A DNA stretch of 64,000 nt, taken from Owenia fusiformis (lineage: Eukaryota; Annelida; Polychaeta; Sabellida; Oweniidae). Both the position numbers and the translations under genes were made by a program. Location of the stretch: the NCBI GenBank assembly GCA_903813345.2, contig CAIIXF020000009.1, forward strand, positions 4,768,030 through 4,832,029, written 5' to 3'. Positions 3,047 to 47,069 of the stretch are shown piece by piece. Under the pieces are notes generated by a model, which worked only from the letters and a program-made list of their open reading frames with translations, was not told where the DNA came from and did not search any database. How positions within the stretch are numbered: position 1 is the first letter of the stretch; every line of letters begins with the position of its first letter.

Positions 3047-3595
3047 ATGGCAGACACAGCAGCAAAGAAGGCAGCAAAGCCAAAGAAGCCAGCCAATCAT
3101 CCCAAATACAGCGAGATGATCCAGCAAGCAATCACTTCATTGAAAGATCGTACAGGATCCAGCCGAGTTGCCATCCTGAAGTACATCCAGGCTAACTTCA
3201 AGGACCTTGGTGGCGATGCATCCGTCAACTCTCACTTGAAGATGGCTCTTCGTGCTGGTGTCAAGAATGGTGCTCTCAAGCAAACGAAAGGAACTGGTGC
3301 ATCCGGCTCCTTCAAAATTGGCAAGGTAGAGAAGCCAAAGAAGGTCAAGGTAGTGAAGAAGAAACCAGCTGCCAAGAAACCCAAAGCAAAGAAACCAGTG
3401 GCCAAGAAAGAGAAGAAAGTAAAAACCCCAAAGAAGGCAGAAAAGAAACCAAAAACACCCAAGAAGGCTGCCAAGAAACCAGCAGCTAAGAAGGCCGTCA
3501 AAAAGACTCCAACCAAGAAAGCTGCCAAGCCAAAGAAGCCAGCTGCAAAGAAAACACCCAAGAAGAAAGCCGCAAAGAAACCAGCCAAGAAATAA
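3047..3595 (+). CDS. Histone H1 (linker histone), replication-dependent
   Basis: An intronless 182-residue linker histone, which binds the nucleosome dyad and linker DNA to compact chromatin. A short Lys/Ala/Pro N-terminal arm (1-16) leads into a winged-helix globular domain at about 17-92, with the family landmarks [20 protein letters not shown], the [11 protein letters not shown] helix and the [10 protein letters not shown] wing. Residues 93-182 form a Lys/Ala/Pro-rich tail of KKPAAKK-type repeats. The length is slightly below the usual 190-220 residues. The ATG is the first in frame after the TATA box at 2950. The stop is followed 32 bp later by a canonical histone stem-loop, so this is a cell-cycle-regulated, non-polyadenylated histone mRNA rather than a replacement variant. 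No core histone genes lie nearby. Other open frames over this locus are shadows of the Lys-rich tail. Confidence 0.96.
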
Positions 3596-6070: not shown

Positions 6071-7494
6071 TTATGACCCGCGCCTGTTTTTGTCAAAATC
6101 TTTGCCTTTGACTTGTGTCAATTCATCAACCATTGGATCGTCATCAGTTAGTTCATTCGTGGTTGTCTTATTGTGCTCTACTAGAGGCGTTGTTTCAAGT
6201 GCATTTGTTTGTTTATTCTTTCCATTGATTTTTGACACTGAGTCAGCCTCGTTGGCCTCATGGACTATTTGCTCTTTGAAGCTCACCCCTCTGTTAAAGT
6301 TATGGACACTGATTGATGAATGTCGCCGTGGGGTTGTCTCGCAGTCGGACTGATATGCCATCAAATTGAAGGGACTATTGGGATCTTCAGTCAGCTCCCT
6401 TGCACTACAAGAAGGAGTATCAACAGGAACCGAAGAATGAAAATTGTTGTATCCTATCTGGTACTTGCCTGTGTCTCTTTGGTACATGGTAAGGCGTCTG
6501 AAACGGTGTCCCCAAAGTATCTCAGAGGGAAGGTATGATGTTCTGACCTGGGTAGTCATTCCTGTAGATTCAATGATTCCTTCCATGATGACAACAAGCT
6601 CGAATCTATCACGTTTAAGATCCTCCTTAGAGATGTGATAGAACGGACTGTTCTTGTCGATAATATGACAGGCCATCGTAGGCCACACAAGGAAAAGGTT
6701 ACCATTGAGTGGTACATGGAAAGCAACATCCTGTTCAAATAACGGGAGGACCTCACCCTCTTTTGTGACGCTTCCTTTACTTTTATTGCTCTGATTTTTG
6801 TCTCAATCATATGCTCGCGCCTCATATCACCGACACGAAAGAGTAAACTCAAGATTCCCTCGCGCATGCAGACTACGGCGTTCTTGCTGAAGATTAATGT
6901 ATGACAACGTCGCTTTGGACGCTGAATTTTGGAGAAGACAATCCCGGTAAGAATAGCCGTCATAAGTGTCCCTCCAACCGACTGAAGCATCATGAGAATA
7001 ATTGCCTCAGGGCATTTAGATGTAGTCGCCCTGCTTCCATACCCAATAGTATGTTGAGTCTCAATACTGAATAGGAGAGCTGTCGGGAAATCAACAACCT
7101 CGTCCACACATGGAGTCCAGTCATTATCACCAATGTGGTTAAAGTCACCACGAGCCAGCAGAATAAGCCACCACAATAGCGCAAATATCAACCATGATAA
7201 TATGAATCCACCAAGAAACATAAGGAGTATAAACCTCCATCTTGTATCTACCAAAGTAACGAAAATGTCCGCAATGTAACCACGTCCTCGACGGTGGATT
7301 TCCGTCTGTATGATATTGCGATCCCCATTCTTTTCAATCAATCGGCGTTTTGCGTTAAATGCATCATCATCACTCATTGATATGCGTCTCCATGTCATTC
7401 CAATGTATTCCGAGAAAGATCGCTTCCTTTCCCTGAATGCATTCGGACAGCACGAAATCTTGGATTCGTTGTCATAGCAACTCGAGTCCATCAT
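6071..7494 (-). CDS. Inward-rectifier potassium channel (Kir), frame interrupted once
   Basis: About 474 residues once a one-base frame break is allowed for: 7494 down to about 6785 in one frame, then to the stop at 6071 in the next. Kir channels are tetrameric K+ channels that set resting potential. Visible in order: cytosolic N-terminus; M1 at about 86-111; pore loop with selectivity filter TIGYG (149-153); M2 at about 164-190; the basic KIQRPKRR segment (189-196) that binds PIP2 in this family; then the cytosolic immunoglobulin-like domain with VTKEGEVLPL, a HIIDKNSPFY segment and a polar tail. The frame break falls at an A4 run (6781-6784). One more A restores RAIKSKG followed by SVTKEGE, matching the family pattern R-A-x5-[IV]-T-x-E-G-E. 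A sequencing error is likely, though a true null allele is possible. The residue at the Kir2.1 Asp172 position is Thr179. The start is ATG 7494 or 7491. The coding region appears intronless. Confidence 0.88.
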
Positions 7495-8074
7495 GATCAA
7501 ATGAAGTACAAATCACTGTAGCTTATCTATTCTACTCAAATTGATTTTGAGACAACATACGTTAATAACTTAAAATCATGTGTGTATACTTATTTGGAGA
7601 TGTCTACTGTACCAATGCAACATAAAGAGGGTGTTTGCCCTATTTGTACTGCTCAGTCTCTACAGGGCGTTTCACTAAAATATCCTTTCACACATTGATA
7701 ATTTAATAGACTTCACAAAAGGTTTTAAACTGTACAGAAAATCTATATGGAATATCATAATTGAATATACTAAAAATACACTATTTATATTGAAGATGTA
7801 AAATCCGTATTATTATATGATTATGGTCGTCATTTAGTCAGCATAATCCATCTTTAAACAGCAATACAATGTAATGTGACCAGACCTTATGGGAAAGGGG
7901 TTTATGTTTATTGGGTTAACTTAGCATTTTCATTTTTCTACAAAGGTTGCTATGGCTGTGAGTGCAGGTATGGTGAAGTATGTTTATTGCGTTACATTGT
8001 CCATTTGGTGCTCACGTGTAAAAACATGTGATTGGAATTCCAATAATAAATAAATTATATAAAATGTGCATGTA

Positions 8075-26412: not shown

Positions 26413-26638
26413 TCATAAAAATTCACTCAGCTCCTCTTGTAGCCAATCAGGTATTGGCGTGGTGCCAAGTCTCAGCAGTAGCTTGGATAACGCCACCAGG
26501 TGGCGCCTATAAAATAATTTCAAGAACTTTTCAGCTTTAAGTTCCATAGGGGGATATACCCGTCCTTTACTGCGTCCAAGACACTTTGTTCTGTCTCCTT
26601 GTACTAGTTGACAATAGAAACCCTTCTTGGGGTTGTAC
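26413..26638 (-). CDS. NDST: NDST exon 12 (terminal)
   Basis: Acceptor ATATTCCAG then GTACAACCC. It encodes [11 protein letters not shown], the CLGRSKGR motif and a C-terminal helix ending [14 protein letters not shown], then TGA at 26413-26415. Confidence 0.93.
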
Positions 26639-29600
26639 CTGGAATATAGCGTAATAGAAATGAATTGTCAGATGTATCCTAAATAACTATATCCTATCAG
26701 GGGTGTAGCCGGCTTTCAGTCAGGGTGATGCGATCGCCAAATAAAATTTGGCATTGTGTCATAAACAAGCCAAAAATCCCACCCATCGCACCGCCCCCCT
26801 GGCTACGCCTATGTCTATAATGCATTCATTATACCTATTCCATGTAGGATCCACACAATAATCATATTGTGTGATCTTCATTTTAACTAATATTGATCTT
26901 TATACTAGTATTAGGAGAAAATGCCAATGAAACTAGACTTTGAGTAAAAAGTAGTTCCCAAGGATTTCAGTATATACCTGAACCTTATCTTTCAGTTATA
27001 TGTAATGTAACCTTAAAAATGTAACCCTATTAACTGAAAATTCACTTTCTCAACCATGCCGGTATACTATTGAATTTTCTCATGTATCTAGTATTGTACT
27101 TATGGGATTGAGAGATATCATAATATCACTCTGTTCATTTTTTGGGTCACCCTGTGGTTTCCTACCTGAGTGATTGGTTGTAATCAAAGCGAGGTTCGAT
27201 GTGTATGAATTTCTCAACCTTGCTCATGAGGCTTACTGGATCCCCCTTGAGGGCCTCACCATCTAAGATCATCAGCTGAAAGAAGAAACAAAACATAATA
27301 TACTTCACAATTCCCCACGTGAGCCTCATCAAGCAGCATAAGCTGAAAGGATAAGAACATGACTTTGTTTTCATTCACAATTTCCCTAAGGAGCCTCACC
27401 GTGAAATCTGAAGGGAAAAATGTAACCATCTGGATCATAAGCTGAAAAAAAAACCATATTTCATAACCCCTCATGCAGCTCTGATTCTATTGGTTATGTT
27501 TATTTTACTTGTTTTGGTTACATTTTTAACAGGGCTAAGTACTAATGAGAACCCCCATCCCCTCGCAGTCTATAAATAAACACAAAAGTATTAATATGAG
27601 CCAAAAACAATGATATGGCAGAAATCAAAATTAATATTCTGAATGTCAGTAACCACCACAAAAATATAAGATTTTTGTTCGGTGGGATAACAAAGTATTA
27701 ACATACAAAATGTCACCACCTGCCATTTGTTACAGATGTCAACCACTGACCACCATCAACAAAAAAAGTTGGAGACTATAAAACTATGTGACCACTTTTG
27801 GTGGTGCCATAAAAATGAACAAAAATTATGACGCTTTACCTGTTTAGGCTTGTAGAACTCTAGCCAACGCTCCAGGTGGGTGGAGTAAAGACCTGGCTTC
27901 AGACAGCGCTCTCTCAGTTCTTGAAGGTTACGTGGCGCATCTTGCCCAGCAGTCACTACTTCATAGAATGTGTATGTCATTGCTGTTTGGTCGCCATGGG
28001 CTCGCATGTGCTGGAAAATGGACAGGGACATACATGGCTTATGTAATGCATACATAGTACTATGTAACATGAAAAAAGCATCAATTTTTGATAACCCAGC
28101 ATGCACAAAACCTTATAAGATATTGATACTAGAACTTATTGCATCTGTAATATATCATGTTTAACCGATGAACAGTTTTCTTGCTGTTTTGAAGACAACA
28201 TTGTGTCGCACGCCCATTACATCAACTCAAAACCACTATGACCTAGCACCTTTCAAGTGTGAAAAATAAAAGTGTCACACGTATTTACCTGGTACCATGA
28301 GTACGCTCTCTTGGCTGGGTGGATGATTATACAGATCAGTTTTGCCTGAGGTAGGAGGGCATAGGCCCTCATGGGAGCCAACTCACTGTCAAAATAGTTG
28401 GCGCTCTTCTCGAACAGGAAGTTGCTGGTCGTGTTGGGAGGTAGAGGGAAGAATTCCATGTACCTGTTGGGAATTTAAATTTTGTATATGATACGTGATG
28501 GCACAATAACTAGATCAATTGATTTTCTGGTCTATAATCGAGTATATATGATTACTTTTTTATAAATCCAAATATTAGTAGTTGTTTTTCAGGTTTGTTT
28601 ATCATATTTGAATTGTAACAAAGATCTCGTTTTGACATGATTTCAGTGTTTTAATAATGAACAGAATTAACCTTTTGGTCATATATTGTGGCATAAATCT
28701 TAGAATCTTGGTCTTTATTCCTTAAATTGATCAAAATACTTTTTAAAGAAAAAACGGATTTGAACCAAATGAAGCTACTGTATATCAATGTGTATAGTGT
28801 ATACCAAATGGATTTTATACAGTGCATTATCAACTTCGCTTTGATCGTTTCAATCTTCTCAATTACTTACCAGTCCAAGCCCTTGTAGTAATTGTTTCCA
28901 TTGAAGAACTGGACCTCCTCAAAGGTTGTCTTACTCTGGTAATTGCTCAGTATTGCTGGGTGCATTGCTAGGAATGTGTACAGGGCAGTTGTACCTACAA
29001 TGTAAAGCCAAGTATAACAAAGTTTGCCCAGTCCAAATAGCTGAAGTAAAAATCGCTAGTTGAGTGAAATTGAATTTAGCGCAATCTCAAACCAATTGAA
29101 CCCCTCGTGCCTCCATGAATGAGATAATTGCCAAGTTGCTTTCTTGAGAAATCAAAATCACAATATTCTTTGATTTCCCAAAAGTGCAATTCGCCATGTT
29201 ATTTATTTATCCTTTACCTTGAACTTCTTAAACTTGGTATTATCCAATTATCTTCGATGAAATGAAATTTCAAGTATACAAAAAATGAAAAAAAATATGT
29301 TTTTCAATCTTGTAGATTTTTCAACATGAAATAAAAAGTGAAGACATATTTTTCAAATTAAATGTTTATGCCATTATCAAAGAATAGGGACACTTTCAGA
29401 TCTATTCATGATAATAATTTGTTTTTTACATACTTATCACACGTAAATCATGTACATCATGTACATGCTAAGAACATGACATCAATTTATCAGCAAAAAC
29501 TGACCTGTCTTCTGGGGACCAATAACAAGGAAGCGAGGTAGTCGATTACAAGTCTTGTTCTTTGACCAGATTGCCAGGTGGCGCTCATCATCACACGGAT

Positions 29601-32600
29601 TCTGCCAGATTGGGTCCTCATCTTCTGGGAACATCTCAAAGTATCTGCAAATCATAATATCCATTTATTTTGAGATTAACCCAAAGAGTGTCCATCTATG
29701 CTTAACATGATAATTTATTACACATAATTATTAGATACATGATACATAGAGTAATGAATTTTTTTACTAACTGCCCCAAGGGTACAATAAAAATTACAAC
29801 ACAATAGAATTGTGCAAACCAAACAAGGCATCAACATGATAAAATGTCACCACCTGTTAATGGATTGCAAATAGCTATGGAAATACAAAATATTGTTAAA
29901 GATGTTGACCACTGAAGCCGAATGCAAAAACTCCAAACTCCAATTAGAAGAACAATAATGTGTAACAGTATGTTACAACTTCTTGGTGGTTACATAAATA
30001 CTCACAAATAATCTGAAAGCTTACTTGTTTGCAAACTGCATTGGGGGAAGACTTTGTAAGTCAAGATTGGTCCAGCATTGAGTGAACTTCACTGCACTCT
30101 CAAATGTGTACAACGCAAGGCGGTCATTCCCATAATTCGACAAATGCGTCATAAAAACACTGAACTGAAACGTATAACAATATTTTTAAAACAGTTTTAA
30201 CCAATTCCAAAGGCCTATCACAGTAGTTAACTGGGAAAACAAATTTAGAACAAAACAAATATGCATAGCCTCACATTGAGCAGGTGAGGCTACAGCCTCG
30301 CCAAAATACTTGCAGGAAATACAACAATTCAGACATTTCTTATATTAATAGAAACCTTGAATATGAAGCTTGCCCGTAGCCAGCTTTTACCAGGAGGGGG
30401 AGCTTTTTTCCAGGGGGGGGAGCTTTTTCACAATTTTGGCTAAAAATCATGCGAAAAATTCTCAGAATGGTGAAAAACTGCATGATTTTGAAAGAATTTC
30501 CGCTCCCCCAGCTCCCCCTCTGGCTACGGGCCTGTGAAGTCATATGAAAGTGTTATTTCACTTTTACATAAAATTTGTGACATCAAATGTACTGTCAAAA
30601 AAATGTGAACAATATATTTTTCAAATGTTGATGATTCTAAGTTTCTTGAGAAAATTATTTAGGGGTGATACTCACTGGATTGAACAGCAGTGTCTGGAAG
30701 AGCTCTCCTCCCCGTATACTATTCTCAAGTCGACTTCGACCTCCTGGGTACTTATCAATGAAGATGGTATGTGTGAAAAGACCACAGGTCTGACGCGGTA
30801 GCACCTAAAATATATTAATTTAAACATATCAAATATATTAACAGAACAAGACATACAGTGCTAAATATCACTTTTCTATCTAGAAATTCAAAATAGCCAC
30901 CAAGTAATTTACCCAGAATGCCCAAAATCTAATGCACAAGTGACAAAGAGCTGACCTCCAGATTGCTAAAATAAACAAATGAACAAGAAGCATTCGAAGT
31001 TAACCCCAAATAGTCAAGCAATAATTGTTCTGATCCTAACAGCAAAATTGAGGTAGAAACCTGTTGTGGCTTTTGTGAAATTTTAGACACACAGACAAAT
31101 AGACAAGCCATAGACGAGCCTGACCTTTCAATGTAATGAGCAGATAATGATGGGGACCTAAAACTATTTTCTACCTTGATTCCTCGATGTATAAAGCCTC
31201 GTCTATACCGTGCAGGACGTAGATGAGGATATTCCTCTGTGCTTGTCACCTTGACGCCCCAAACTTTCTTCCAGGCATCGTAAAGCTCCTCGTGTACAGG
31301 GTACACCCCGCTATGATGTGGGGCCACGGCATACCCAGTGAATGCTTTTATACCTTTCTCCTACAAAATCAACAGACATGTTTATATACAAACTCGTTAG
31401 TAATATTACATTATCATTATGTATTCAAAATATTCCTTCTTGTTGTGTTTTTATTTTATACTAAAAAGCTATGTCTTAAAAATATACTCCAAGATGTTTC
31501 CAAATTCATGGCATTAACCAGAATGATAAACATTCATGAAATAATTTTTTACAGAGAACTCCAGATGCTTTCAAATGCACTTTCAAATCTTTATTTTTTT
31601 TCAATTTTAAAAACAGAGAAGTTTAAATGTACATATAATGTATATATTTTACAGAACTTATATTTGTAAAATTATTTCATAATGAGAAACTTAATTGTAC
31701 AAATGAACAACAATATACCAAAGCATGCACTACAGTACATACATATGTAGACAGTATTCTCCCCAGGATTTTTTCAAGTTAGTGCAAAATTTGTACAATC
31801 TTGACTAAAATTAGTCAAAATAGGCTTACTTTTTCATGGTTTTTCTTAATTTCATGTGGGTGAAAAAGAGTTTTCAAGTGGGCGCAAATGAGCCTTCAAG
31901 TGGGTGCAAATTAGCTTCCAATTGGATGCAAATGAGATTTCATCTTAGTTCAGGCCTATTTCCAAAACCCTAACCCTACAGTGCCCACTTGCTTTAACAT
32001 TGAGGAGAGTACCGTTCTACCAGTATATACCAAACTAATTGTCAAAGTTTCCCTTAATCTATGCTTGTATCATACTTCAAATTGTGACGGTTCAGATCAG
32101 AGAGATAACTATGATAACGGTTCGGATCAATATATGTCAATGAAATGTGCTACTTGTTAGCAAAGATCACAGAGCCATACTTGATCAAGTTCTATAGTTT
32201 TTTAATACATTTAATGTGATGGCCAATCACCCTTGTTAATAAATGACTGTTGCTAAATATGTTAAGTGTGACAGTTATAACTTACCTTTTGTTATCAAAA
32301 TGTGACATTTGAGTAAAGGACCCCCAAACTCATTCACCAGTTTGATTTTCAATTATGAAAATGTCATAACTTGGTAATCTAAGATGAAGGACCCAAGTAA
32401 AATGTTTTACTTAACATGTAAAACAAAATTACTTCCAAATGCTCTTCAATTGTTAAGTGCAAATTTGTGATTCTTATTTTGAAGGTGTGACATACTATAG
32501 GAGCCTGGATGATAATAACCTACTGCCCAAGTGTGACATATTAAAATAGAACTAGAAGAGTACCACCTGCCCTTCAATTAATAAGTGTGACAAATTCTTG

Positions 32601-35600
32601 ATTCTTTTCTCAAAAGTGTGACACATACCTACCACCAAAAAGAAACAAGTCTGACATAATGCGATGGCAAAATGTGACATTAATACAAGTTAGCAAAGTG
32701 TGACATAAATTCCTTGGCAAAGAGTGACATAAATACCTTTGGGAAAGTGTGACATAAATACCTTAGCAAACTTGACATTTTCGGTCATCTCTCGATGAAG
32801 CTGAGTTTGGTTTAACTTTGCTGCCTGTTCATGGGAGTACATGTGTCCAAACCACCAGAATGCATCCTTATACGCTGTGTATTACATAATAATTGAATTT
32901 GAAATGGATAAACTAGACATTTCATTATCATACAGGGGGAGGGGCAATCCTCATTTAAAGGAATCGCCCTTGGGGAAAGCAGTCAGACTGGATGGACATA
33001 TCACTATGGGAACCCCTATCGTTATTGTGACTATCGCTCAACTACACTACAGCATGCATAAATGACTATAAGATAGCAAGCATCAAAGGTAATCAAATAA
33101 TGTGTTATTATAAAAACATTATTAAATCACACATCTAAGAATTGTACAAGTGCGGTATTGTGAATTTGTTCTCATGCAAATAGCAATTTATAATCAATCT
33201 GATAATAAACAACAAAATAGGCCATGAAGAAACAAAAAGTAACAATCAATATGCAAAATATTTACAATGAAAATTCACAATATGTGCAAATATACAATAT
33301 TTATTATACAATACTCTAGCTATACCAGAAAGTTGGTAAATCCCATGAGCTTTTTAACCTAACAGAAACACATTGCATTATGGGATTGACCTTGACTTCC
33401 TGGTGCAAGTACCTAGAATTAATCTACCAATGTAACTTAACCCCAGCACTCCTATATTCATTTAATTTTCAGACAATGTTCACATATGGTACAATCTTAG
33501 TGATAATTTGATTATATGACAGGGTAATACATATGAAAGTATTTTTTCATGTATTTTTTACAAGTTGGCAAAAAATCAAAGAGGTTTCAAATTCTTAGTA
33601 ATATTTTTATACCTTAGCACCAGATTTTATCATTAACTGTTTTAATTTTACTTTGCCATGGCATTTTTAAATTACTTTAATATTTAAAAAATCTGCTGGG
33701 GTTAGGTTCTTGGGCAAAGTCCCTTGTCACCATCCATAAACCCCATTTTCCTACCCATATCTGTGAATATTCACAACTAGTAATGAAAGATGGCATTACT
33801 AGTCTTGAGACCTGGGTGTCCAGACCCATGAGAAGGTTTGTATGTTAGGAGATAAGGGTTACAAATGGGTTTAAGGGTGGTTACATATATTATACACAGC
33901 AAGGGTTACACATATGCACCACAACGATATTGTGCAATGTGGACGATTTGTCTTATACCTGAGCGAAGTTCACATTGATGCTCATATCCTGATAAAGGCG
34001 TGTCAGGTTCGTGATTTTATGAGGCTGCGTATGCCCCCACATATGTGGGAACCACCAGAATCTATCCTGGTATTCTGAAGATTCAGTAAGCATATTAGTA
34101 ATAAAATGGAATGGATAAATAAACAAGGCATTAACATGCAAAATGTCACCACCTGCCATTTGTTACAGACACCAAACGCCAGACACTGGACGCCGACCAC
34201 TGTCAATGGAGACAATAACAGTATGTCACCACATTTGGTGGTGACATAAAAATGGTAAACACATATAGGAAGATCTATAGTCTTGCGTCAAGTATCTCGA
34301 CCCTCTAACCCCCACAAACAATCACTGACCTTCCAAAAAGAAGATGTGTAGGGGGCACAAGTATTTGATGTAAGGTTATAGGATCTGGATCTAGAGGCTC
34401 TTAGTCTTGTTCTGGATCAAATCCCTCTATCATCAAAATTTTTTTATTGCTTCCACCAAACTGCATGTGGATGTAAAACTGGCTTAATATTTGCTCTACT
34501 GAAACGTATTTACTTTCCATATGCCCCCTTTCACTTAGCAAAAATCGGGGATACTCATTGATTCAACTCAACACGATATTGACAATACTTGTACAGTACT
34601 AGTATACTCTTATAATATATTGGTTCAAATAAACTGTAAGCCAATAATAGCATAAAATGAAGCTGAACTGAAAATTAGAATACCATGCATTATCTTGGTA
34701 GAAAATTGAGTAACACTGTCACATCTATCATTTCTATTATTAGCTTTTCTATTAAAGATAATACATGACAGACTTCAGTACAAAAGCAAAAAGCAAAAAC
34801 TTGGGGACCTGTCCAATATGCAAATTGTAAAAGATTTTTAGTTAAACAGTATATATAATATATGCACATGTATATGTGAATTGAAATATTTTTGTATTCC
34901 AAAATTTTAGAAAGCATGTATATATTAAAATGCAAGGCATTAACATGGAAAATGTCACTACCTGCCATTAGTTACAGACACCAAACTCCAAATGCCAAAC
35001 TCTGAACACCAATCACCGAACCCCTTCCACAAAAAAGTTGGAGACTATAACAATATATCACCCTCTTGTGGTGGTGACATAATATCAACGCCTTAATGTA
35101 GCCAAACTTTTATGATAGTTAATAGTCATGTATCAGGTCCCTGTTCTGCCTCAATTTTTCCAATCAGTGAGTGATAATGGACAATACATATAAAGGGGCT
35201 TAATACAAGACTACCTCAGAACTTGGGTTTCTTATAAAATCATTGGACGAAAAATAAATAACTGGATTGGGAATAGCCTTCAGGCTTTATTCATCTATAA
35301 TATCAAGATATCCACTCTTATAATAAAATAAAATATTATTGGCAAATTGATTTCTAGATCCCAGTAATCTGATTTAGTGATGCATATGAAAGTCAGATCC
35401 AATTCCCTAATACTTTTCTATTGACTATAAGGGATTACTGGTTACTTTAATATGTTACAAATTAACGTCAATTCCTCCATAGATATTTGTTATCTGTTAA
35501 AACACTAATGAATCTTTTTCTAATTTACTAATGATGTTAGAGGGGAACCGATACATCAAAGGACAACTGGCATTTTTATTGAGATATATTACTCTCAAAT

Positions 35601-38600
35601 GTTTTTGTTCCTTTTTTAAATGATAACTTCTAAAGCTTTGCTTGGAGAAAAAAAGCTGTTGATGATAGTTCATTGATTTTTAATCTCGCATTAAGCCCTT
35701 ACACCCCCTCTCACAGACATCACATTCTGGGGGTTGAAGTAGATAAGGAGGGGGGGGGGCTCTAGGGACGTGATGAAAGATTTCCTGATGTTAGAAAAAA
35801 CAATAATTTAGGCCATTGCATTATTCCTAAGAGAAGTACATAACATGCATAAAATAACAACAAGTTCATTACAAATGTACGTTGTCATGGAAATAATTAA
35901 AAATAAGTCAGTTACAAATGTGAGTTGGCTGGACCTTGAGCATTTTGAAAACACATTCTATATTTAAACATATTCAACTAGTGGTATAAACTGTGATAAA
36001 AAAATTCTTCACAGAAGATGCAAGCAATTTCCATCTCCACATTAATATATAACACTTCTTTATTCATCTATCGAGAATAACACGAGTTGTACCCTTTGCA
36101 TTCGTTTGACTTCACTTCTTAAAAGAGAGCTTCGTCTTCACTCTTTCAAACTAAAATAAACCTGTGAACTCACCGCGCCAATCAGTGTTCGTCGACCAAA
36201 TTTGACCGACGTTCTATATATGGTCATTCCTTCTGACGTCATCGTTGACCCCGGAATTGACCAATGACACGCGCATATTTAATTAGAACGCATTTGGCGT
36301 ATGTTTCTTCAAGTTCGCTGATTGGTGGAAGAAAGGTCAGTGCGTAGTAGGTCAGAAGTGATTTATTGCCAAACTGTCACCGGTATCCGTCGTGGGGGCG
36401 GGGCTACTAAACTGTAATATGGTCTCTACTAGGCAGAGTGTAGTTTAACTAGACTCTGCACGCAGGGTACACGAGTTGATAATTTCTGATTATAAATGAA
36501 GATTGAAGAAGTTTATATAAACTAATCATAATTATTGTTACCTAGCAACATGTCATCTCCGGCATCCTCCTCATCGTTACCACGGTGATAGTATTTCCCA
36601 GAGAATCCTAGATTGAAGTGGAAACCTGGGATTGATCTCCGTAACCGATCCTGGGAATCTATCAAGGCCTGAAATAATGTATTTTCATTATTTATTAAAG
36701 TAATGCTTAAAGATCTAATAGCAAAGGTTTTGCAAAAATGAATCAATGTAGTATAAAACAAATGTATGTATAATGAAGAAATAAATATACAATGAAAAAA
36801 ATAGATACGTGCTTGTAATATTGGTATTAACTTATGATTAAAAAGTGTCACTATCTCTTTCATTTTTCAACAAATATAGGCTCACGTGACATGTGACGCG
36901 GGGCAGGCAATTTTGATCTATCGTAGACCATATCAGTATCAAATTGCCGATATTTCAACCTCGTCTTGCGAGGCCATTTTGATTTGAAACATCTTGAATT
37001 TGGTGTCAAAATAAAGCTGGTCACGCCCACTTTCATAGTTATCAATGAATCATTTACTACGACTACTATATTCATTTAGGAGGCGTGTAAAGTTAACCAA
37101 TCAGAAAGACAATTGTTCCATATATGGCAGTTCATTCACATATTCAGTGCTTACTACTGTTTTTCGCGTCATGACAACATGAGGGAACGTGAGTAGTAAC
37201 CAATCAAGATGCCGTATTTTATCACGTGATTTCAGAGTGAAAAGTACACGCGTACGACAACGACATGTAGTCTGAGCTGATCGCGATGTTGAACAATTTC
37301 TTCTCGGAATTTGTCCAGAGAAATTAGCGATTCTAAATTAAGATAGGATCTGCCATTTCTTCCTGTACAAGTTTTAACTTATCTCTAATGAATACTAAAA
37401 TTTTGGATGAAGATATTAAGCATACGTTTAAATACGAAGCGATTAATTTGACGATCTGATTTTGCAATTTGCAATGGCCAATTTACAGCAAGTCTGCGTG
37501 TATTTGACAAGAGATAGCCAAGTCTTGTATCTAAATGCTTGTTAAGCCTTACTCAAAAACATTAAGATCCATATTTTCTAAAGTTGATAACTTTGCAGAA
37601 AACCTGTTTTCATAACCTGATTTCCGCGTCAAAAATTCAAACTGAGTAATAGGAATGGATCGGTGGGATCCTCAGTCTCCTCGGGTCTTCATTCCAGAAC
37701 TCACATTTTTAGTTGATTCTCCGACCGTCATAGTACTTGTCTAAAGTATCCATATTTGCTCTCTTACTGGTATACTTGGACACATTTTCCCCTGTATTTT
37801 CCCCAGTCAAATTACACCCTCTCGCCGATTTATAAAAGCCATTTCTCAGAACCCGGGAATCAGAATCGCTGATGTTTGCCATATTGAACATGTTGAAATA
37901 TGTACTGTAATATCTGTATTGCCTACTACGCGTAATGGTCACGTGACTAGCGCGATACAGGAAAAATGGGGAATTTCGAAACAACAATTTTTGGGCACTT
38001 TTATTGCAAATTTCAGGTATCTATAAGTGTTTGTGGTATAAAATATCATCCCCAGACATAAATGAACATCCAAACTACATATTTTATTAAGTTTTGGAGC
38101 CTTTTTTACTCTTAAATCAACATCTTTAATTAATTTGTAAATGCATGCATCAATAGTTACTAGTAAATCCCATAATTTTTATCCCATTTTTATCCCATAA
38201 TCTGATATATGAGTTCCTTGAAAAATAGTTTTGAAATATGCTCAAAATTAATGTTAATATAATTAAATAATGCTAATAATGCTATGGGTTTGAATGTTGA
38301 ATTTGAGAATATACAAATAGGATGTAATACAAAATGGTATTTTTGATCAAAGAAAAAGTCATTAAGGTTTTATAATGTATATACATGTATACTTTAACAC
38401 AATAAGTGATTCTCTTCTTAAACAAGTAGCATAATCTCCAGCCAAACAAGGTACACTACCTGAAGTCCTGTATGAAGCCCCCCCCCAGGATACATTTACA
38501 GACTAAAGTAGTAAAACCAATTAGAAACCTAAACAAGGCATTATACCATCCACAAAAAGTTCAGAATATAACAATGTCACCACTTCTGGTTTTGATATAA

Positions 38601-40066
38601 AAACTAGTTTCAAAATAGCCAAGCCCCCATTTCCTCCTTTATTCTCTCTTAAAAAGAAACAAGGAAGAAGCAAACCAGTAGTTTTGCTTCAAGTCATACC
38701 CCAACCCAATCAAGTTTCTCCATTTAGATGTATCATAAAAAGGGCTCCAATCAAGACTACCAATCAGAGACTTCAGATCCGACTCCCTATATCCGACTCC
38801 CTATATACTTTATGTCTAGTTATATACAACTAGGCACAAGGGCTCCAAGCAAGACTACCTATATCAGAGACTATAGCAATATCAGAGAGATCTTTTATTA
38901 ATTAAGTCCTTGGATCTTAATCCCTTTATCTACTTTATGTCTAGGCATATACAGCAGGGCACAAGAAGGGCTTGAATGAAGACTAATTTTCTAAGAGAAA
39001 TATTTCAAGTATTGTTTACCTTGACATCTGCTGGCTTCATCCTAGTGCCGACCTTGCCAACGAAGATATCATCGATATCAATGAGGATGTTCCTCTCAAG
39101 AGTAATGCTGAACTTTCCATGGGAGAGGAACGACAAGGCATCCAGGAAAAGTAATATATGAACCCAGCACTGGAACCCATTTCCAAAAAGCACACGATTG
39201 ATGTCATCATATTTTCCAGTGTCGTGAATCACGGTGGTGTAAGCATGTTCTTGATAACCATCTGTGATGTTCTGGAAGCGTTTAGCAGTTTGTGTTTTCG
39301 CGTAAGCAAGGGGTCGATAGGTGGCATGTTCAGGTTCGAAAACCGTCCAATCATCCCCTGGGATGTCTCCATAAAGGATTTCCCCGGCACGAGTCACCCG
39401 CAGAATTTCAGATTGTGGGTTCAATTCATAATCCTTAACTGCTAAATTGTTGTAGAGTTTCAACGGGAAACCCTGAACCTCCGTGACGTAGGGGACGTCA
39501 GGTTCCCCGCCAGAGAAGGCGATTATCCCGACATTATATTCTCTACAATATTTATCCAATAGCTGCCTATTCCATTTATCCAAGGAGGTATATGATTTTA
39601 ATCTCTCGAAAATAATTACTCCAAATTTCCCTTTGTCTAAATGTGTGAGATATGGTAAACTTTTACCGGCAATGTCCATTTTGTATTGTATTCTGTTTGC
39701 TTCTAAGATACCAATAATTGATTGTCCTAGTTTACTGTACTGCGTTTCGACGAGAAGTAGAACTTTGTTGTCGATTCTGAGGCTTGCGCTGGAAACATGA
39801 TTATGAGGGGTGTGATTTATATTTGATTTATGTACTGTATTGTGTAACCGGCACTTTATCGTTGGTTCCGGAGGATTTCGGGCCACCGTGTTAAAATGAG
39901 TCGTTGAGACATAATATGAAAAGCAACATAGAGAGATAATACAACATATCAATGCAAACAACAGGGTCTTTATTATGGTACCCTGACGCACATAAAATAT
40001 CCGTCTTATTCTATTGAAACATGTGACCTCTTTCTGAGGTCCACCTAACAGTGTTGTTTTCGCCAT
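26413..40066 (-). CDS. NDST: Heparan sulfate N-deacetylase/N-sulfotransferase, 12 exons, 896 aa
   Basis: A bifunctional type II Golgi enzyme that removes acetyl from GlcNAc of nascent heparan sulfate and adds sulfate from PAPS to the freed amine, the first modification step. With exon 3a the 12 exons sum to 2691 nt with no stop, all introns GT/AG and every phase matching; the family is about 870-890 residues. Visible: cytosolic arm 1-30; membrane anchor 31-53; deacetylase domain with DIDD (330-333) before [10 protein letters not shown], the FWWF...HMWGH pair of His (402, 406), APHHSGVYP and RYRRGFIH; then the sulfotransferase with 5'-phosphosulfate loop GPQKTGTTA (Lys627, equivalent to the catalytic Lys of human NDST1) and 3'-phosphate segment [10 protein letters not shown]. 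The C-terminal CLGRSKGR motif is present. The start ATGG has AAA upstream. One exon exists in two alternative copies (3a/3b). Paralog number cannot be assigned; invertebrates often have one gene. Confidence 0.95.
26698..26815. mobile_element. MITE, GTAGCCAG family, in NDST intron 11
   Basis: GGGTGTAGCCGG at the left and CTGGCTACGCCTAT at the right are inverted. Interior non-coding, about 118 bp. Confidence 0.5.
27166..27275 (-). CDS. NDST: NDST exon 11
   Basis: Acceptor CTTTCAG then CTGATGATC; donor CTCAG then GTAGGA. It encodes [13 protein letters not shown] through [17 protein letters not shown]. Two degenerate copies of its acceptor and first codons lie directly upstream. Confidence 0.92.
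27276..27460 (-). repeat. Degenerate copies of the NDST exon 11 acceptor
   Basis: Reading the minus strand toward exon 11, TTTCAG-CTTATGATCCAGATGG and TTTCAG-CTTATGCTGCTTGATG precede the true TTTCAG-CTGATGATCTTAGATG. Each copy spans the pyrimidine tract, AG and the first 12-20 bases of the exon, 65-100 bp apart. Confidence 0.65.
27690..27812 (+). mobile_element. Helentron-like element, copy 3
   Basis: TAACAAAGTATTAACATACA at the left, then AAATGTCACCACCTGCCATT and GTTACAGATG; it ends CACTTTTGGTGGTGCCATAA. It is in NDST intron 10. Confidence 0.7.
27840..28010 (-). CDS. NDST: NDST exon 10
   Basis: Acceptor TTTTCCAG then CACATGCG; donor AAACAG then GTAAAG. It encodes HMRAHGD through [29 protein letters not shown] and YKPKQ: 57 codons, phase 0. 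A Helentron-like copy ends about 28 bp from its donor. Confidence 0.92.
28289..28463 (-). CDS. NDST: NDST exon 9 (3'-phosphate-binding segment)
   Basis: Acceptor CCCAACAG then GTACATGG; donor TACCAG then GTAAAT. It encodes [27 protein letters not shown] and [11 protein letters not shown]. Confidence 0.94.
28871..28994 (-). CDS. NDST: NDST exon 8
   Basis: Acceptor CATTGTAG then GTACAACT; donor GACTG then GTAAGT. It encodes [28 protein letters not shown] and LDW. Confidence 0.92.
29505..29644 (-). CDS. NDST: NDST exon 7 (PAPS-binding loop)
   Basis: Acceptor ATTTGCAG then ATACTTTG; donor AGACAG then GTCAGT. It encodes [22 protein letters not shown] and [11 protein letters not shown], carrying the catalytic Lys627 of the 5'-phosphosulfate-binding loop. 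Confidence 0.94.
29823..29997 (+). mobile_element. Helentron-like element, copy 4
   Basis: ACAAGGCATCAACATGATAA then AATGTCACCACCTG at the left; it ends TTCTTGGTGGTTACATAAA. More diverged than the others. It is in NDST intron 6. Confidence 0.65.
30025..30164 (-). CDS. NDST: NDST exon 6
   Basis: Acceptor CGTTTCAG then TTCAGTG; donor AACAA then GTAAGC. It encodes [20 protein letters not shown] through LPPMQFAN, the junction between the deacetylase and sulfotransferase domains. Confidence 0.92.
30370..30534. mobile_element. MITE, GTAGCCAG family, in NDST intron 5
   Basis: GCCCGTAGCCAGCTTTT at the left and CTGGCTACGGGCC at the right. It shares the ATCATGCGAAAA and GGTGAAAAACTGCATGATTT segments with 25139-25298 on the opposite strand. 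Confidence 0.65.
30676..30804 (-). CDS. NDST: NDST exon 5
   Basis: Acceptor ATATTTTAG then GTGCTACC; donor AATCCA then GTGAGT. It encodes [19 protein letters not shown] and [12 protein letters not shown]: 43 codons, phase 0. Confidence 0.92.
31175..31360 (-). CDS. NDST: NDST exon 4
   Basis: Acceptor TTTTGTAG then GAGAAAGG; donor ATCAAG then GTAGAA. It encodes [43 protein letters not shown] and [12 protein letters not shown]: 62 codons, phase 0 at both ends. Confidence 0.93.
31752..32016. mobile_element. Possible MITE in NDST intron 3
   Basis: AGTATTCTCCCCAGGAT near the left and the loosely inverted TTGAGGAGAGTACC near the right. The interior has 20-23 bp repeats of TTCAAGTGGG(C/T)GCAAAT. 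The termini are diverged, so the call is weak. Confidence 0.45.
32670..32770 (-). repeat. Tandem copies of the exon 3b donor
   Basis: Four units of 23-28 bp. On the minus strand: TTGCTAAG-GTATTTATGTCAC (the real donor), then CCCAAAG-GTATTTATGTCAC, GCCAAGGAATTTATGTCAC and TTGCTAACTTGTATTAATGTCA. The second unit keeps a usable GT donor. A looser GTGTGACA-rich extension continues to about 32265. Confidence 0.75.
32762..32874 (-). CDS. NDST: NDST exon 3b (alternative duplicate exon)
   Basis: Acceptor ATACACAG then CGTATAAGG; donor GCTAAG then GTATTT. 113 nt, phase 1 in and 0 out, 38 residues reading [20 protein letters not shown] and on to NVKFAK. It aligns along its whole length with exon 3a: FWWF, the two His of HM-x-x-H and the FA[QK] end are kept, while P-H-M-W becomes G-H-M-Y and Q-P-H becomes Q-A-A. 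No stops, intact splice sites. It replaces exon 3a rather than adding to it, because joining 3a to 3b runs into a stop within about 20 codons. Confidence 0.85.
33959..34074 (-). CDS. NDST: NDST exon 3a (canonical version)
   Basis: Acceptor ATCTTCAG then AATACCAGG; donor CTCAG then GTATAA. 116 nt, phase 1 in and 0 out, 39 residues reading [20 protein letters not shown] and on to NVNFAQ. It keeps the F-W-W-F-P-H-M-W-x-H-x-Q-P-H motif of vertebrate NDSTs. A Helentron-like element starts about 60 bp upstream of its acceptor. Confidence 0.92.
34132..34249 (+). mobile_element. Helentron-like element, copy 5
   Basis: ACAAGGCATTAACATGCAAA then ATGTCACCACCTGCC at the left; the right end TGTCACCACATTTGGTGGTG followed by ACATAA is a perfect hairpin. 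It lies just upstream of exon 3a and is the best preserved short copy. Confidence 0.75.
34931..35083 (+). mobile_element. Helentron-like element, copy 6
   Basis: GCAAGGCATTAACATGGAAA then ATGTCACTACCTGCC at the left; it ends CTTGTGGTGGTGACATAA. It is in NDST intron 2. Confidence 0.72.
36178..36404. promoter_or_regulatory. Promoter-like cluster in NDST intron 1/2 region
   Basis: Within 230 bp there are CCAAT boxes (36178-36182, 36261-36265 and inverted at 36321-36325), a perfect CRE TGACGTCA (36234-36241), TATATA near 36215 and a GC box GGGGGCGGGGC (36394-36404), in a CpG-richer patch than the surroundings. It lies just downstream (in minus-strand terms) of exon 2, in the intron holding exons 3a/3b. 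It could be an internal NDST promoter or carried by a transposable element. Confidence 0.35.
36542..36668 (-). CDS. NDST: NDST exon 2
   Basis: Acceptor ATTTCAG then GCCTTGATAG; donor CTAG then GTAACA. It encodes ALIDSQ..., the [13 protein letters not shown] block and the acidic [10 protein letters not shown], ending in phase 1. Confidence 0.93.
38532..38600 (+). mobile_element. Helentron-like element, copy 7 (deleted)
   Basis: ACAAGGCATTATACCATCCA then AAAAAGTTCAGAATATAACA and ATGTCACCACTTCTGG. Only the ends remain. It is in NDST intron 1. Confidence 0.55.
38744..38985. repeat. Direct repeat pair beside the NDST exon 1 donor
   Basis: Two imperfect copies of about 110-130 bp, each holding GGGCTCCAATCAAGACTACC-type sequence, a TCCGACTCCCTA / TTAATCCCTTTA stretch and ACTTTATGTCTAGNNATATA. 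The right copy ends about 35 bp from the exon 1 donor. Confidence 0.55.
39020..40066 (-). CDS. NDST: NDST exon 1
   Basis: Encodes residues 1-349: cytosolic arm, membrane anchor, stem and most of the N-deacetylase domain up to [10 protein letters not shown]. The donor is AAG then GTAAAC. This large first coding exon is typical of NDST genes. Confidence 0.93.
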
Positions 40067-40835: not shown

Positions 40836-40897
40836 AAATAGTCCAGAATTCATAGATGAACAAAGGAAATATCCCAGAATTCATAGATGAACAAAGG
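40836..40897. repeat. 31-bp minisatellite, left part
   Basis: About two units of GAACAAAGGAAATATCCCAG then AATTCATAGAT, in register with the 13 further units at 41321-41727. The array is interrupted by the TIR element at 40898-41320. Confidence 0.9.
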
Positions 40898-41320
40898 CGA
40901 ACTCCCGTGCAGTGATATATCACTGCGGCGGGCAGGTTTCTCACCGTAAGCATGGTAACATCATAATAAACAACTGACGTGATTGGTTCTAGCCCCATGC
41001 TCAGGTCGCGTGATTGTAAAATTTAGACAATTTCAGTGGTTGAATTGCGCGTATTAACTAATAAACAACACGTGCGGTAAACTTTTATCAACACAACCTT
41101 TACTCAGATTTCCTTCCGCGGGGATTTCCTCTTATATTTCATTGATTTTGGAATATTTTGACAAAATAATTATTGGTGAACATAAAAGAACATATATTTT
41201 ATAAGTTGTGTGAAAAACAAGTACATCTGTGACAAAAAGGGGGACTATCTTCCCCAAATTTTGGGGATTCCATAATCTGCCCGCCGCAGTGTCTATACCG
41301 AGCCACTGCATAGGAGTTCG
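40898..41320. mobile_element. 423-bp TIR element inserted in the minisatellite
   Basis: Ends CGAACTCC and GGAGTTCG are inverted. The inversion continues with gaps through CACTGCGGCGGGCAG / CTGCCCGCCGCAGTG. Both sides carry the 9-bp direct repeat GAACAAAGG (40889-40897 and 41321-41329), as expected for a Mutator-like (9-bp duplication) non-autonomous element. A short minus-strand open frame across it is not a gene. Confidence 0.82.
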
Positions 41321-41727
41321 GAACAAAGGAAATATCCCAGAATTCATTGATGAACAAAGGAAATATCCAAGAATTCATAGATGAACGAAGGAAATATCCC
41401 AGAATTCATAGATGAACAAAGGAAATATGCCAGAATTCATAGATGAACAAAGGAAATATCCCAGAATTCATAGATGAACAAAGGGAACATCGCAGAATTC
41501 ATAGATGATCAAAGGAAATATCCCAGAATTCATAGATGAACAAAGGAAATATCCCAGAATTCATAGATGAACAAAGGAAATATCCCAGAATTCAAAGATG
41601 AACAAAGGACATATCCCAGAATTCATAGATGAACAAAGAAAATATCCCAGAATTCATAGATGATCAAAGGAAATATCCCAGAATTCATAGATGAACAAAG
41701 GAAATATCCCAGAATTCATAGATGAAC
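41321..41727. repeat. 31-bp minisatellite, right part
   Basis: Thirteen consecutive 31-bp units, most identical or with one or two changes, ending at about 41723 before unique sequence. Confidence 0.95.
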
Positions 41728-46715: not shown

Positions 46716-47069
46716 TCAGGCTATTGCTCCACTCTCAGGCCTATTGCTCCACTCTCAAGCCCATTGCTCCACTCTCAGGCCTATTGCTCCACTCTCAGGC
46801 CTATTGCTCTACTCTCAGGCCCATTGCTTCACTCTCAGGCCTACTGCTCCACTCTCAGATCTATTGCTCCACTCTCAGGCCCATTGCTCCACTCTCAGGC
46901 TTATTGCTCCACTTTCAGGCCTATTGCTCCACTCTCAGGCCTATTGCTCCACTCTCAGGCCTATTGATCTACTCTCAGGCCCATTGCTTCACTCTCAGGC
47001 CCATTGCTCCACTTTCAGACCCATTGCTCCACTCTCAGGCCCATTGCTCCACCCTCAGGCTCATTACCC
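46716..47069. repeat. 20-bp minisatellite
   Basis: About 17-18 units of CTATTGCTCCACTCTCAGGC with scattered changes. All three forward frames stay open across the array because 20 is not a multiple of 3 and the unit lacks stop triplets, giving the same 20-residue periodic peptide in each. There is no sign that it is translated. Confidence 0.93.

What the first reader, a model, noticed from the sequence alone, without database searches (positions are those of the whole stretch)
32762..34074. Frame-enforced mutually exclusive exon pair at the NDST deacetylase active site
Exons 3a (33959-34074) and 3b (32762-32874) encode homologous 39- and 38-residue segments, each with FWWF and an HM[WY]xH pair. 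Both have intact acceptors and donors, enter in phase 1 and leave in phase 0. Exon 2 ends in phase 1 and exon 4 starts in phase 0, so skipping both or joining both shifts the frame; 3a-3b hits a stop within about 20 codons. Exactly one must be used. By family knowledge the two His bind the catalytic metal in NDST1. 3b keeps them but changes P-H-M-W to G-H-M-Y and loses the Q-P-H motif, so the two isoforms could differ in deacetylase activity or substrate preference while sharing one sulfotransferase. One gene could then yield two heparan sulfate patterns. I know of no described NDST with this arrangement.
Basis: partly seen in the sequence, partly recalled or inferred. Interest (0 to 1): 0.88.

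Follow-up and report, generated by a model that had tools for sequence, protein, structure and literature searches.

The report
Two alternative catalytic exons in NDST
The only copy found of a heparan-sulfate-modifying enzyme gene in this animal genome carries two alternative versions of the short exon for its metal-binding active site, so splicing could make two enzymes with different active sites, though no RNA data were available to show that both are used.

Summary
The window carries a complete NDST gene on the minus strand (40066-26415), the only HSNSD-CE gene found in the genome. Exons 3a and 3b are homologous (19 of 38 residues identical) with the same phases. Either one alone gives a full-length NDST of 896 or 895 aa; both or neither gives an early stop. 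They cover human NDST1 residues 379-417, including metal ligands H389 and H393 and glycosylation site N401; both exons keep all three (PMC10864358). Among ten internal exons scanned, only 3a has a positive duplicate candidate, which is 3b. Synonymous sites are saturated and replacement sites are not (pS 0.76, pN 0.30), arguing for long selection on 3b. The four residues that 3a shares with human and 3b lacks (P388, W391, P396, H397) all lie in the catalytic loop. 3b has the weaker splice sites by matrix score and is probably the regulated form. Best reading: a tandem-duplicated, mutually exclusive exon pair tuning the deacetylase, a known kind of system in a gene where I found no report of it. 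Splicing, regulation and activity remain untested.

The parts
39020..40066 (-). NDST exon 1 (start codon, N-terminal domain, D319/D320 equivalents)
   Evidence: translated; PF25119; Asp pair in the alignment
36542..36668 (-). NDST exon 2, leaves in phase 1
33959..34074 (-). Exon 3a: 39-residue segment [19 protein letters not shown]..., canonical catalytic loop with both metal-ligand His and the N401 sequon
32762..32874 (-). Exon 3b: 38-residue alternative segment [19 protein letters not shown]..., both metal-ligand His and sequon kept, four catalytic-loop residues changed, one residue fewer
32647..32778 (-). 24-25 nt tandem array resembling the 3' end of exon 3b plus its 5' splice site; carries a second donor with the same nine bases 25 nt downstream (first intron base about 32736), whose use gives a stop at codon 454
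   Evidence: TRF; donor; array listing and translation; only match of a 126-base query in the genome
31175..31360 (-). NDST exon 4, enters in phase 0
30676..30804 (-). NDST exon 5 (LPRQTC motif)
30025..30164 (-). NDST exon 6 (H529 equivalent)
26415..29644 (-). NDST exons 7-12 (29644-29505, 28994-28871, 28463-28289, 28010-27840, 27275-27166, 26638-26415), with the sulfotransferase domain
   Evidence: Sulfotransfer_1

Best explanation
Exons 3a and 3b are an old tandem exon duplication inside the one NDST gene found in this genome, and are used as mutually exclusive alternatives. Each supplies the same piece of the deacetylase domain, the one with the two metal-ligand histidines and the glycosylated asparagine. 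Exon 3a, with the canonical loop and the better-scoring splice sites, is probably the default; exon 3b probably needs an activator and would be the regulated form. mRNAs with both or neither exon shift frame and would be destroyed or make truncated protein. Isoform B keeps the metal ligands and should still bind metal, but its changed loop (P388G, W391Y, P396A, H397A) would alter deacetylation rate or substrate choice while the sulfotransferase half stays identical. Shown: anatomy, frame logic, homology, position in the active site, saturated synonymous and lower replacement divergence. Inferred: splicing of 3b in vivo, regulation, changed activity. The confidence given is for the exon pair being a working alternative pair; the change in activity on top of that is less sure, roughly even odds or a little better.
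For: Full-length isoforms from either exon; stops for both and neither. PF12062, PF25119 and PF00685 over cut-off in both isoforms, PF12062 E 1.2e-107 and 4.8e-103. Of 10 internal exons scanned in their neighbouring introns with WebScipio-type rules, only 3a has a candidate scoring above zero; 3b scores 0.461 of the self score against a maximum of 0.082 in 40 shuffles. pS 0.76 against pN 0.30. With 3b neutral and 3a at omega 0.1, 1500 runs per branch length, runs with pS at least 0.6: 0 of 1173, 0 of 1332 and 0 of 1416 had so low a pN at 0.75, 1.0 and 1.5 substitutions per site per branch. H389, H393 and the N401 sequon kept in both; alanine at either His abolished human NDST1 turnover (PMC10864358, passages). 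The four positions where 3a matches human and 3b does not are 388, 391, 396 and 397; the three where 3b matches and 3a does not are 392, 402 and 414. One HSNSD-CE gene found: 6 of 6 matches lie in this gene.
Against: No RNA evidence of any kind. The 3b acceptor scores lowest of 12 in the gene and ranks 159 of 268 AG sites in the 5.2 kb region; its donor scores second lowest of 12 and ranks 56 of 318 GT sites. By simple match to the U1 consensus 3a and 3b donors are equal, 6 of 9 each, and the 3a acceptor is itself only 9th of 12, so the default/regulated assignment is soft. At 0.5 substitutions per site per branch, 97 of 753 neutral runs reach the observed pN, though mean pS there (0.60) is below the observed 0.76. 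A second donor with the same nine bases 25 nt downstream gives an unproductive product. No convincing competing RNA structure. No animal relatives were on hand to test conservation.
Confidence: 0.8

Rival explanations
1. Exon 3b is a decaying or unused relic of a tandem duplication and only 3a is spliced.
For: Lowest-scoring acceptor and second-lowest donor of the gene; a donor-derived tandem array sits over its 3' end; two family residues at the loop became Ala. A neutral 3b is not excluded at the shortest branch length tried (97 of 753 runs).
Against: No stop, frame intact, both metal-ligand His, FWWF and sequon kept at 62% nucleotide identity. In a one-branch neutral null, 0 of 8000 copies (4000 from each starting exon) kept an open frame, FWWF and both His; an open frame alone was kept by 20% and 17%. 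pN far below pS. A recent loss of use would escape these tests.
Confidence: 0.1
2. Exon 3b acts mainly as a poison exon: joined to 3a it shifts the frame and lowers NDST output, and its protein-coding capacity is secondary.
For: 3a-3b joining gives a stop at codon 451 and the second donor of 3b a stop at codon 454.
Against: A poison exon needs no conserved peptide; 3b keeps the catalytic His pair, sequon and phase.
Confidence: 0.06
3. Both exons are spliced and exclusive but the isoforms are catalytically equivalent; the choice affects folding, glycan or stability only. (Shares the splicing part with the best explanation.)
For: Metal ligands and N401 sequon kept in both; PMC9741552 (section 10 read) reports that ligand residues inside human duplicated exons are mostly conserved between isoforms.
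Against: All four residues shared by 3a and human but lost in 3b lie between 388 and 397, next to the metal ligands; that stretch was chosen after seeing the data.
Confidence: 0.25
4. Assembly artefact, haplotype copy or collapsed paralogue.
For: None found.
Against: Both exons sit in one contiguous locus and are only 50% identical in protein; no other HSNSD-CE place was found in the genome, where gaps or withheld stretches could hide one.
Confidence: 0.02

Closest known systems
[quoted passage not shown] human NDST1, PDB 8cd0, 8ccy, 8chs)
   Same: Same three domains, catalytic Asp pair, H389/H393/H529 equivalents, LPRQTC and GPQK motifs; isoform B aligns from residue 35 to 892 with 8cd0_A at 1111 bits.
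   Different: Two alternative exons for residues 379-417. PMC4359090 (12 of 21 passages seen) states that all invertebrates it investigated have a single Ndst gene; those passages mention no alternative active-site exon.
Tandem-duplicated mutually exclusive exons of enzymes (KHK, ACOX1 in PMC9741552, section 10 read; human MXE atlas PMC5740500, section 7 read)
   Same: Adjacent homologous exons encoding the same part of the protein, ligand residues mostly kept, frame shift on joining in many clusters.
   Different: Here the exon carries two of the three catalytic metal ligands; [quoted passage not shown] NDST occurs 0 times in the main text of PMC9741552 and of PMC5740500; their supplementary gene lists were not seen.
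Vertebrate NDST1-4 paralogues
   Same: Several NDST deacetylase variants per animal; their differing activities are recalled, not looked up.
   Different: Diversity by gene duplication, not by exon choice within one gene.

Membership tests
NDST | HSNSD N-terminal, HSNSD-CE deacetylase and sulfotransferase domains in one protein | tested here: met
   PF25119, PF12062, PF00685 over cut-off in both isoforms
NDST | Catalytic residues D319, D320, H389, H393, H529 (human numbering) | tested here: met
   H389, H393 and H529 mapped on isoform A; 3b keeps both His in the alignment of the same call; Asp pair and H529 of isoform B in the alignment; roles from PMC10864358 (passages)
NDST | N-deacetylase and N-sulfotransferase activity of each isoform | not testable with these tools
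   needs expressed protein
[quoted passage not shown]
   116 and 113 nt, GT-AG, phase 1 in and 0 out, 50% identity
Mutually exclusive exon pair | Joint inclusion or joint skipping does not give a full-length protein | tested here: met
   stops at codons 451 and 408
Mutually exclusive exon pair | Junction reads from each exon bridging the other, and no joining reads unless they shift the frame (PMC5740500, passages) | not testable with these tools
   no RNA-seq on hand
Mutually exclusive exon pair | Mechanism: steric interference, U2/U12 incompatibility or competing RNA structure | tested here: inconclusive
   intervening intron of 1084 nt and GT-AG ends throughout make the first two unlikely, U12 judged by eye only; RNA pairing tests gave no clear signal

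The most novel reading that the evidence does not exclude
One NDST gene makes two enzymes by swapping the exon that holds two of its three metal ligands. Isoform B is a regulated, slow, altered-specificity or nearly deacetylase-dead NDST, so exon choice sets the heparan sulfate N-sulfation pattern by tissue or stage, doing by splicing what vertebrates do with four genes.
Probability: 0.4. Interest if true: 0.8.

Novelty: new member of a known kind. Interest (0 to 1): 0.6.

Why it matters
NDST starts heparan sulfate modification and so sets where later sulfation and epimerisation occur. How cells write tissue-specific heparan sulfate patterns is an old open question. A natural pair of enzymes that differ only in one active-site exon is a clean tool for it: every difference in product must come from about 20 residues. 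It would also be a case of exon duplication at catalytic metal ligands, a kind of place where human duplicated exons tend not to fall (PMC9741552, section 10).

Tried and rejected
Gene model: I set the ends of exons 5, 9 and 10 one base short, so both isoforms showed a false stop at codons 540 and 539; one search corrects this. The stops quoted for 'both' and 'neither' lie upstream of that error.

Third copies of exon 3: tblastn found none below E 0.1 in the window and the genome search none outside this gene. Duplicates of other exons: none of the other nine internal exons scanned had a positive candidate. No animal genomes were on hand, so dating and conservation could not be tested.

Regulation: of 29 inverted-repeat pairs in the region one links the 3b acceptor (32874-32888) with 33886-33900, but targeted pairing of the 3b acceptor was no better than shuffled sequence (29, 31 and 39 of 40 shuffles as good or better). 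Of twelve splice-site pairing tests the best was 3 of 40; of ten intron-pair tests one gave 0 of 30, one 1 of 30 and one 2 of 30. With so many tests I do not rely on these. A TCAC cluster lies downstream of 3b (9 in 300 nt; 0.008% of windows of both strands as rich). The general YCAY motif there is 11 in 300 nt (3.0% of windows as rich) and not enriched over 400 nt (61 of 300 shuffles as many), and the cluster is at least partly explained by the tandem array. I considered a Nova-type enhancer (motif recalled) and keep it only as an idea.

Neutral-decay controls: one search puts all divergence on one neutral copy; one search uses two branches, sets 3a at omega 0.1 and never allows stops. Both rest on 38 or 39 codons. 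At the shortest branch length neutrality is not rejected (97 of 753). Under omega 0.1 to 0.3 for 3b the observed pN is common at most branch lengths tried.

Structure prediction: not run; the isoforms are spliced from separate exons and the tool takes proteins read straight from the DNA. Organism: COX1 and mollusc haemocyanin models found nothing (the latter rang in no control, so it shows no absence). The erythrocruorin linker model gave 3 matches over its cut-off, which (annelid link recalled) suggests an annelid. Species not established.

Full report
What was checked. The finding lies in a complete NDST gene on the minus strand of the window, start codon at 40066 and last coding base at 26415. 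I rebuilt it exon by exon (three exon ends set one base short are corrected): twelve exon positions, one of them with two alternatives, giving 896 aa with exon 3a or 895 aa with exon 3b. Both proteins carry the HSNSD N-terminal domain, the HSNSD-CE deacetylase domain and the sulfotransferase domain above Pfam's cut-offs. Isoform B aligns with human NDST1 from residue 35 to 892 at 1111 bits. The genome search with the deacetylase model found six places, which fall on exons 1, 2, 3a, 3b, 4 and 5 of this gene; gaps or withheld stretches could hide another.

The exon pair. Joining both exons gives a stop at codon 451, skipping both a stop at codon 408. The two peptides share 19 of 38 aligned residues, against a mean of 2 and a maximum of 9 in 20,000 codon shuffles. 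Using rules like those published for predicting mutually exclusive exons (length, phase, splice sites, homology; PMC3228551, passages seen), I scanned the introns beside ten internal exons. Only exon 3a has a candidate that scores above zero; the best is exactly exon 3b at 0.461 of the self score, and the next two are longer versions from the same acceptor. Forty shuffles of the 33958-31361 region gave at most 0.082.

Position in the enzyme. By alignment the exon covers human NDST1 residues 379-417. This includes H389 and H393, which hold the catalytic calcium with D320 and whose alanine mutants are inactive, and N401, a predicted glycosylation site with density for a first sugar (PMC10864358, passages; section 10 read). 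Exons 3a and 3b both keep H389, H393, FWWF and an N-x-T sequon at 401. They are about equally far from human, 19 of 39 and 18 of 38 residues, and both are less conserved than exon 2 (26 of 42) and exon 4 (47 of 62). Four positions match human only in 3a: 388, 391, 396 and 397. Three match human only in 3b: 392, 402 and 414. So the human-like residues that 3a kept and 3b lost are confined to the metal loop. I chose that stretch after seeing the data and give no p-value.

Selection. Synonymous sites are saturated (pS 0.76) while replacement sites are not (pN 0.30); nucleotide identity is 71 of 114. If 3b had drifted freely, simulated pairs at 0.75, 1.0 and 1.5 substitutions per site per branch never gave so low a pN (0 of 1173, 1332 and 1416 runs with pS at least 0.6, out of 1500 each); at 0.5 per branch 97 of 753 did, with a mean pS of 0.60, below the observed value. 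In a harsher one-branch null none of 8000 neutral copies kept an open frame, FWWF and both histidines. Together with the intact frame and splice sites this makes long-term function of 3b likely, not certain.

Splicing signals. With a small matrix from this gene's other sites, the 3b acceptor scores lowest of 12 and its donor second lowest of 12. The 3a donor is 7th of 12 but 5th of 318 GT sites in the region, and the 3a acceptor 9th of 12. A simple count of matches to the U1 consensus does not separate the two donors, 6 of 9 each. The acceptor of exon 9, in the sulfotransferase part, is nearly as weak as that of 3b (-3.38 against -4.72), so weak does not mean unused. At the end of 3b begins a tandem array of about 24 nt units (32647-32778) whose unit resembles the end of exon 3b and its donor, so it was probably seeded there. 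A 126-base query of it has no other match in the genome (that search skips simple repeats). It offers a second donor with the same nine bases 25 nt downstream that leads to a stop at codon 454. The array may matter for regulation of 3b, or may be chance. I found no clear competing RNA structure.

Comparison. Exon lengths that break the frame on joint inclusion are common: 377 human clusters, 60% (PMC5740500, section 7 read). [quoted passage not shown] That fits this pair, and also makes an exon that holds two of three catalytic metal ligands unusual. A study of the zebrafish Ndst family states that all invertebrates it investigated have one Ndst gene (PMC4359090, passages). Nine searches of the open-access library listed no paper whose title or abstract start describes alternative active-site exons in an NDST. 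The listings showed 20 of 70, 17 of 17, 20 of 22, 20 of 26, 15 of 416, 15 of 254, 2 of 2, 2 of 2 and 12 of 59 matching papers; one search was aimed at the structure, not at splicing. Subscription papers and database isoform records were not searched.

Verdict. The anatomy is real and non-random. The best account is a tandem-duplicated, mutually exclusive exon pair at the NDST deacetylase site, with 3a as the probable default and 3b as the probable regulated alternative. That both are spliced, how the choice is made and what isoform B does are inferences to be tested.

Noticed in passing
window 32647-32778 (-): A 24-25 nt tandem array resembling the end of exon 3b and its 5' splice site, with TGTCA-type copies recurring to about 32307; no other match in the genome with a 126-base query.
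   Followed up: partly
window 27682-27767, 34115-34200, 34924-35009: Three copies of an 86-nt dispersed repeat in NDST introns, 66% and 80% identical to the middle one; that one lies 40 nt upstream of exon 3a.
   Followed up: no
window 41321-41727: 31-nt tandem repeat, 13 copies at 93%; similar units reappear near 40850-40905 after an unrelated stretch (by eye). I looked for inverted ends of 20 nt or more around that stretch and found none.
   Followed up: partly
window 3047-3595 (+): Apparently intact linker histone reading frame, PF00538 E 3e-29.
   Followed up: no
window 6071-7500 (-): Inward rectifier potassium channel, PF01007 E 1e-50 on the 314-aa frame; a second frame at 6071-6688 overlaps it and may carry the rest of the channel (not tested).
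   Followed up: no
window 46716-47060: 20-nt tandem repeat, 17 copies, inside an open reading frame of 144 aa that is probably not a gene.
   Followed up: no
G000:C6:27033687-27048438: Three matches to the erythrocruorin linker family, suggesting that the genome is from an annelid (link recalled).
   Followed up: no
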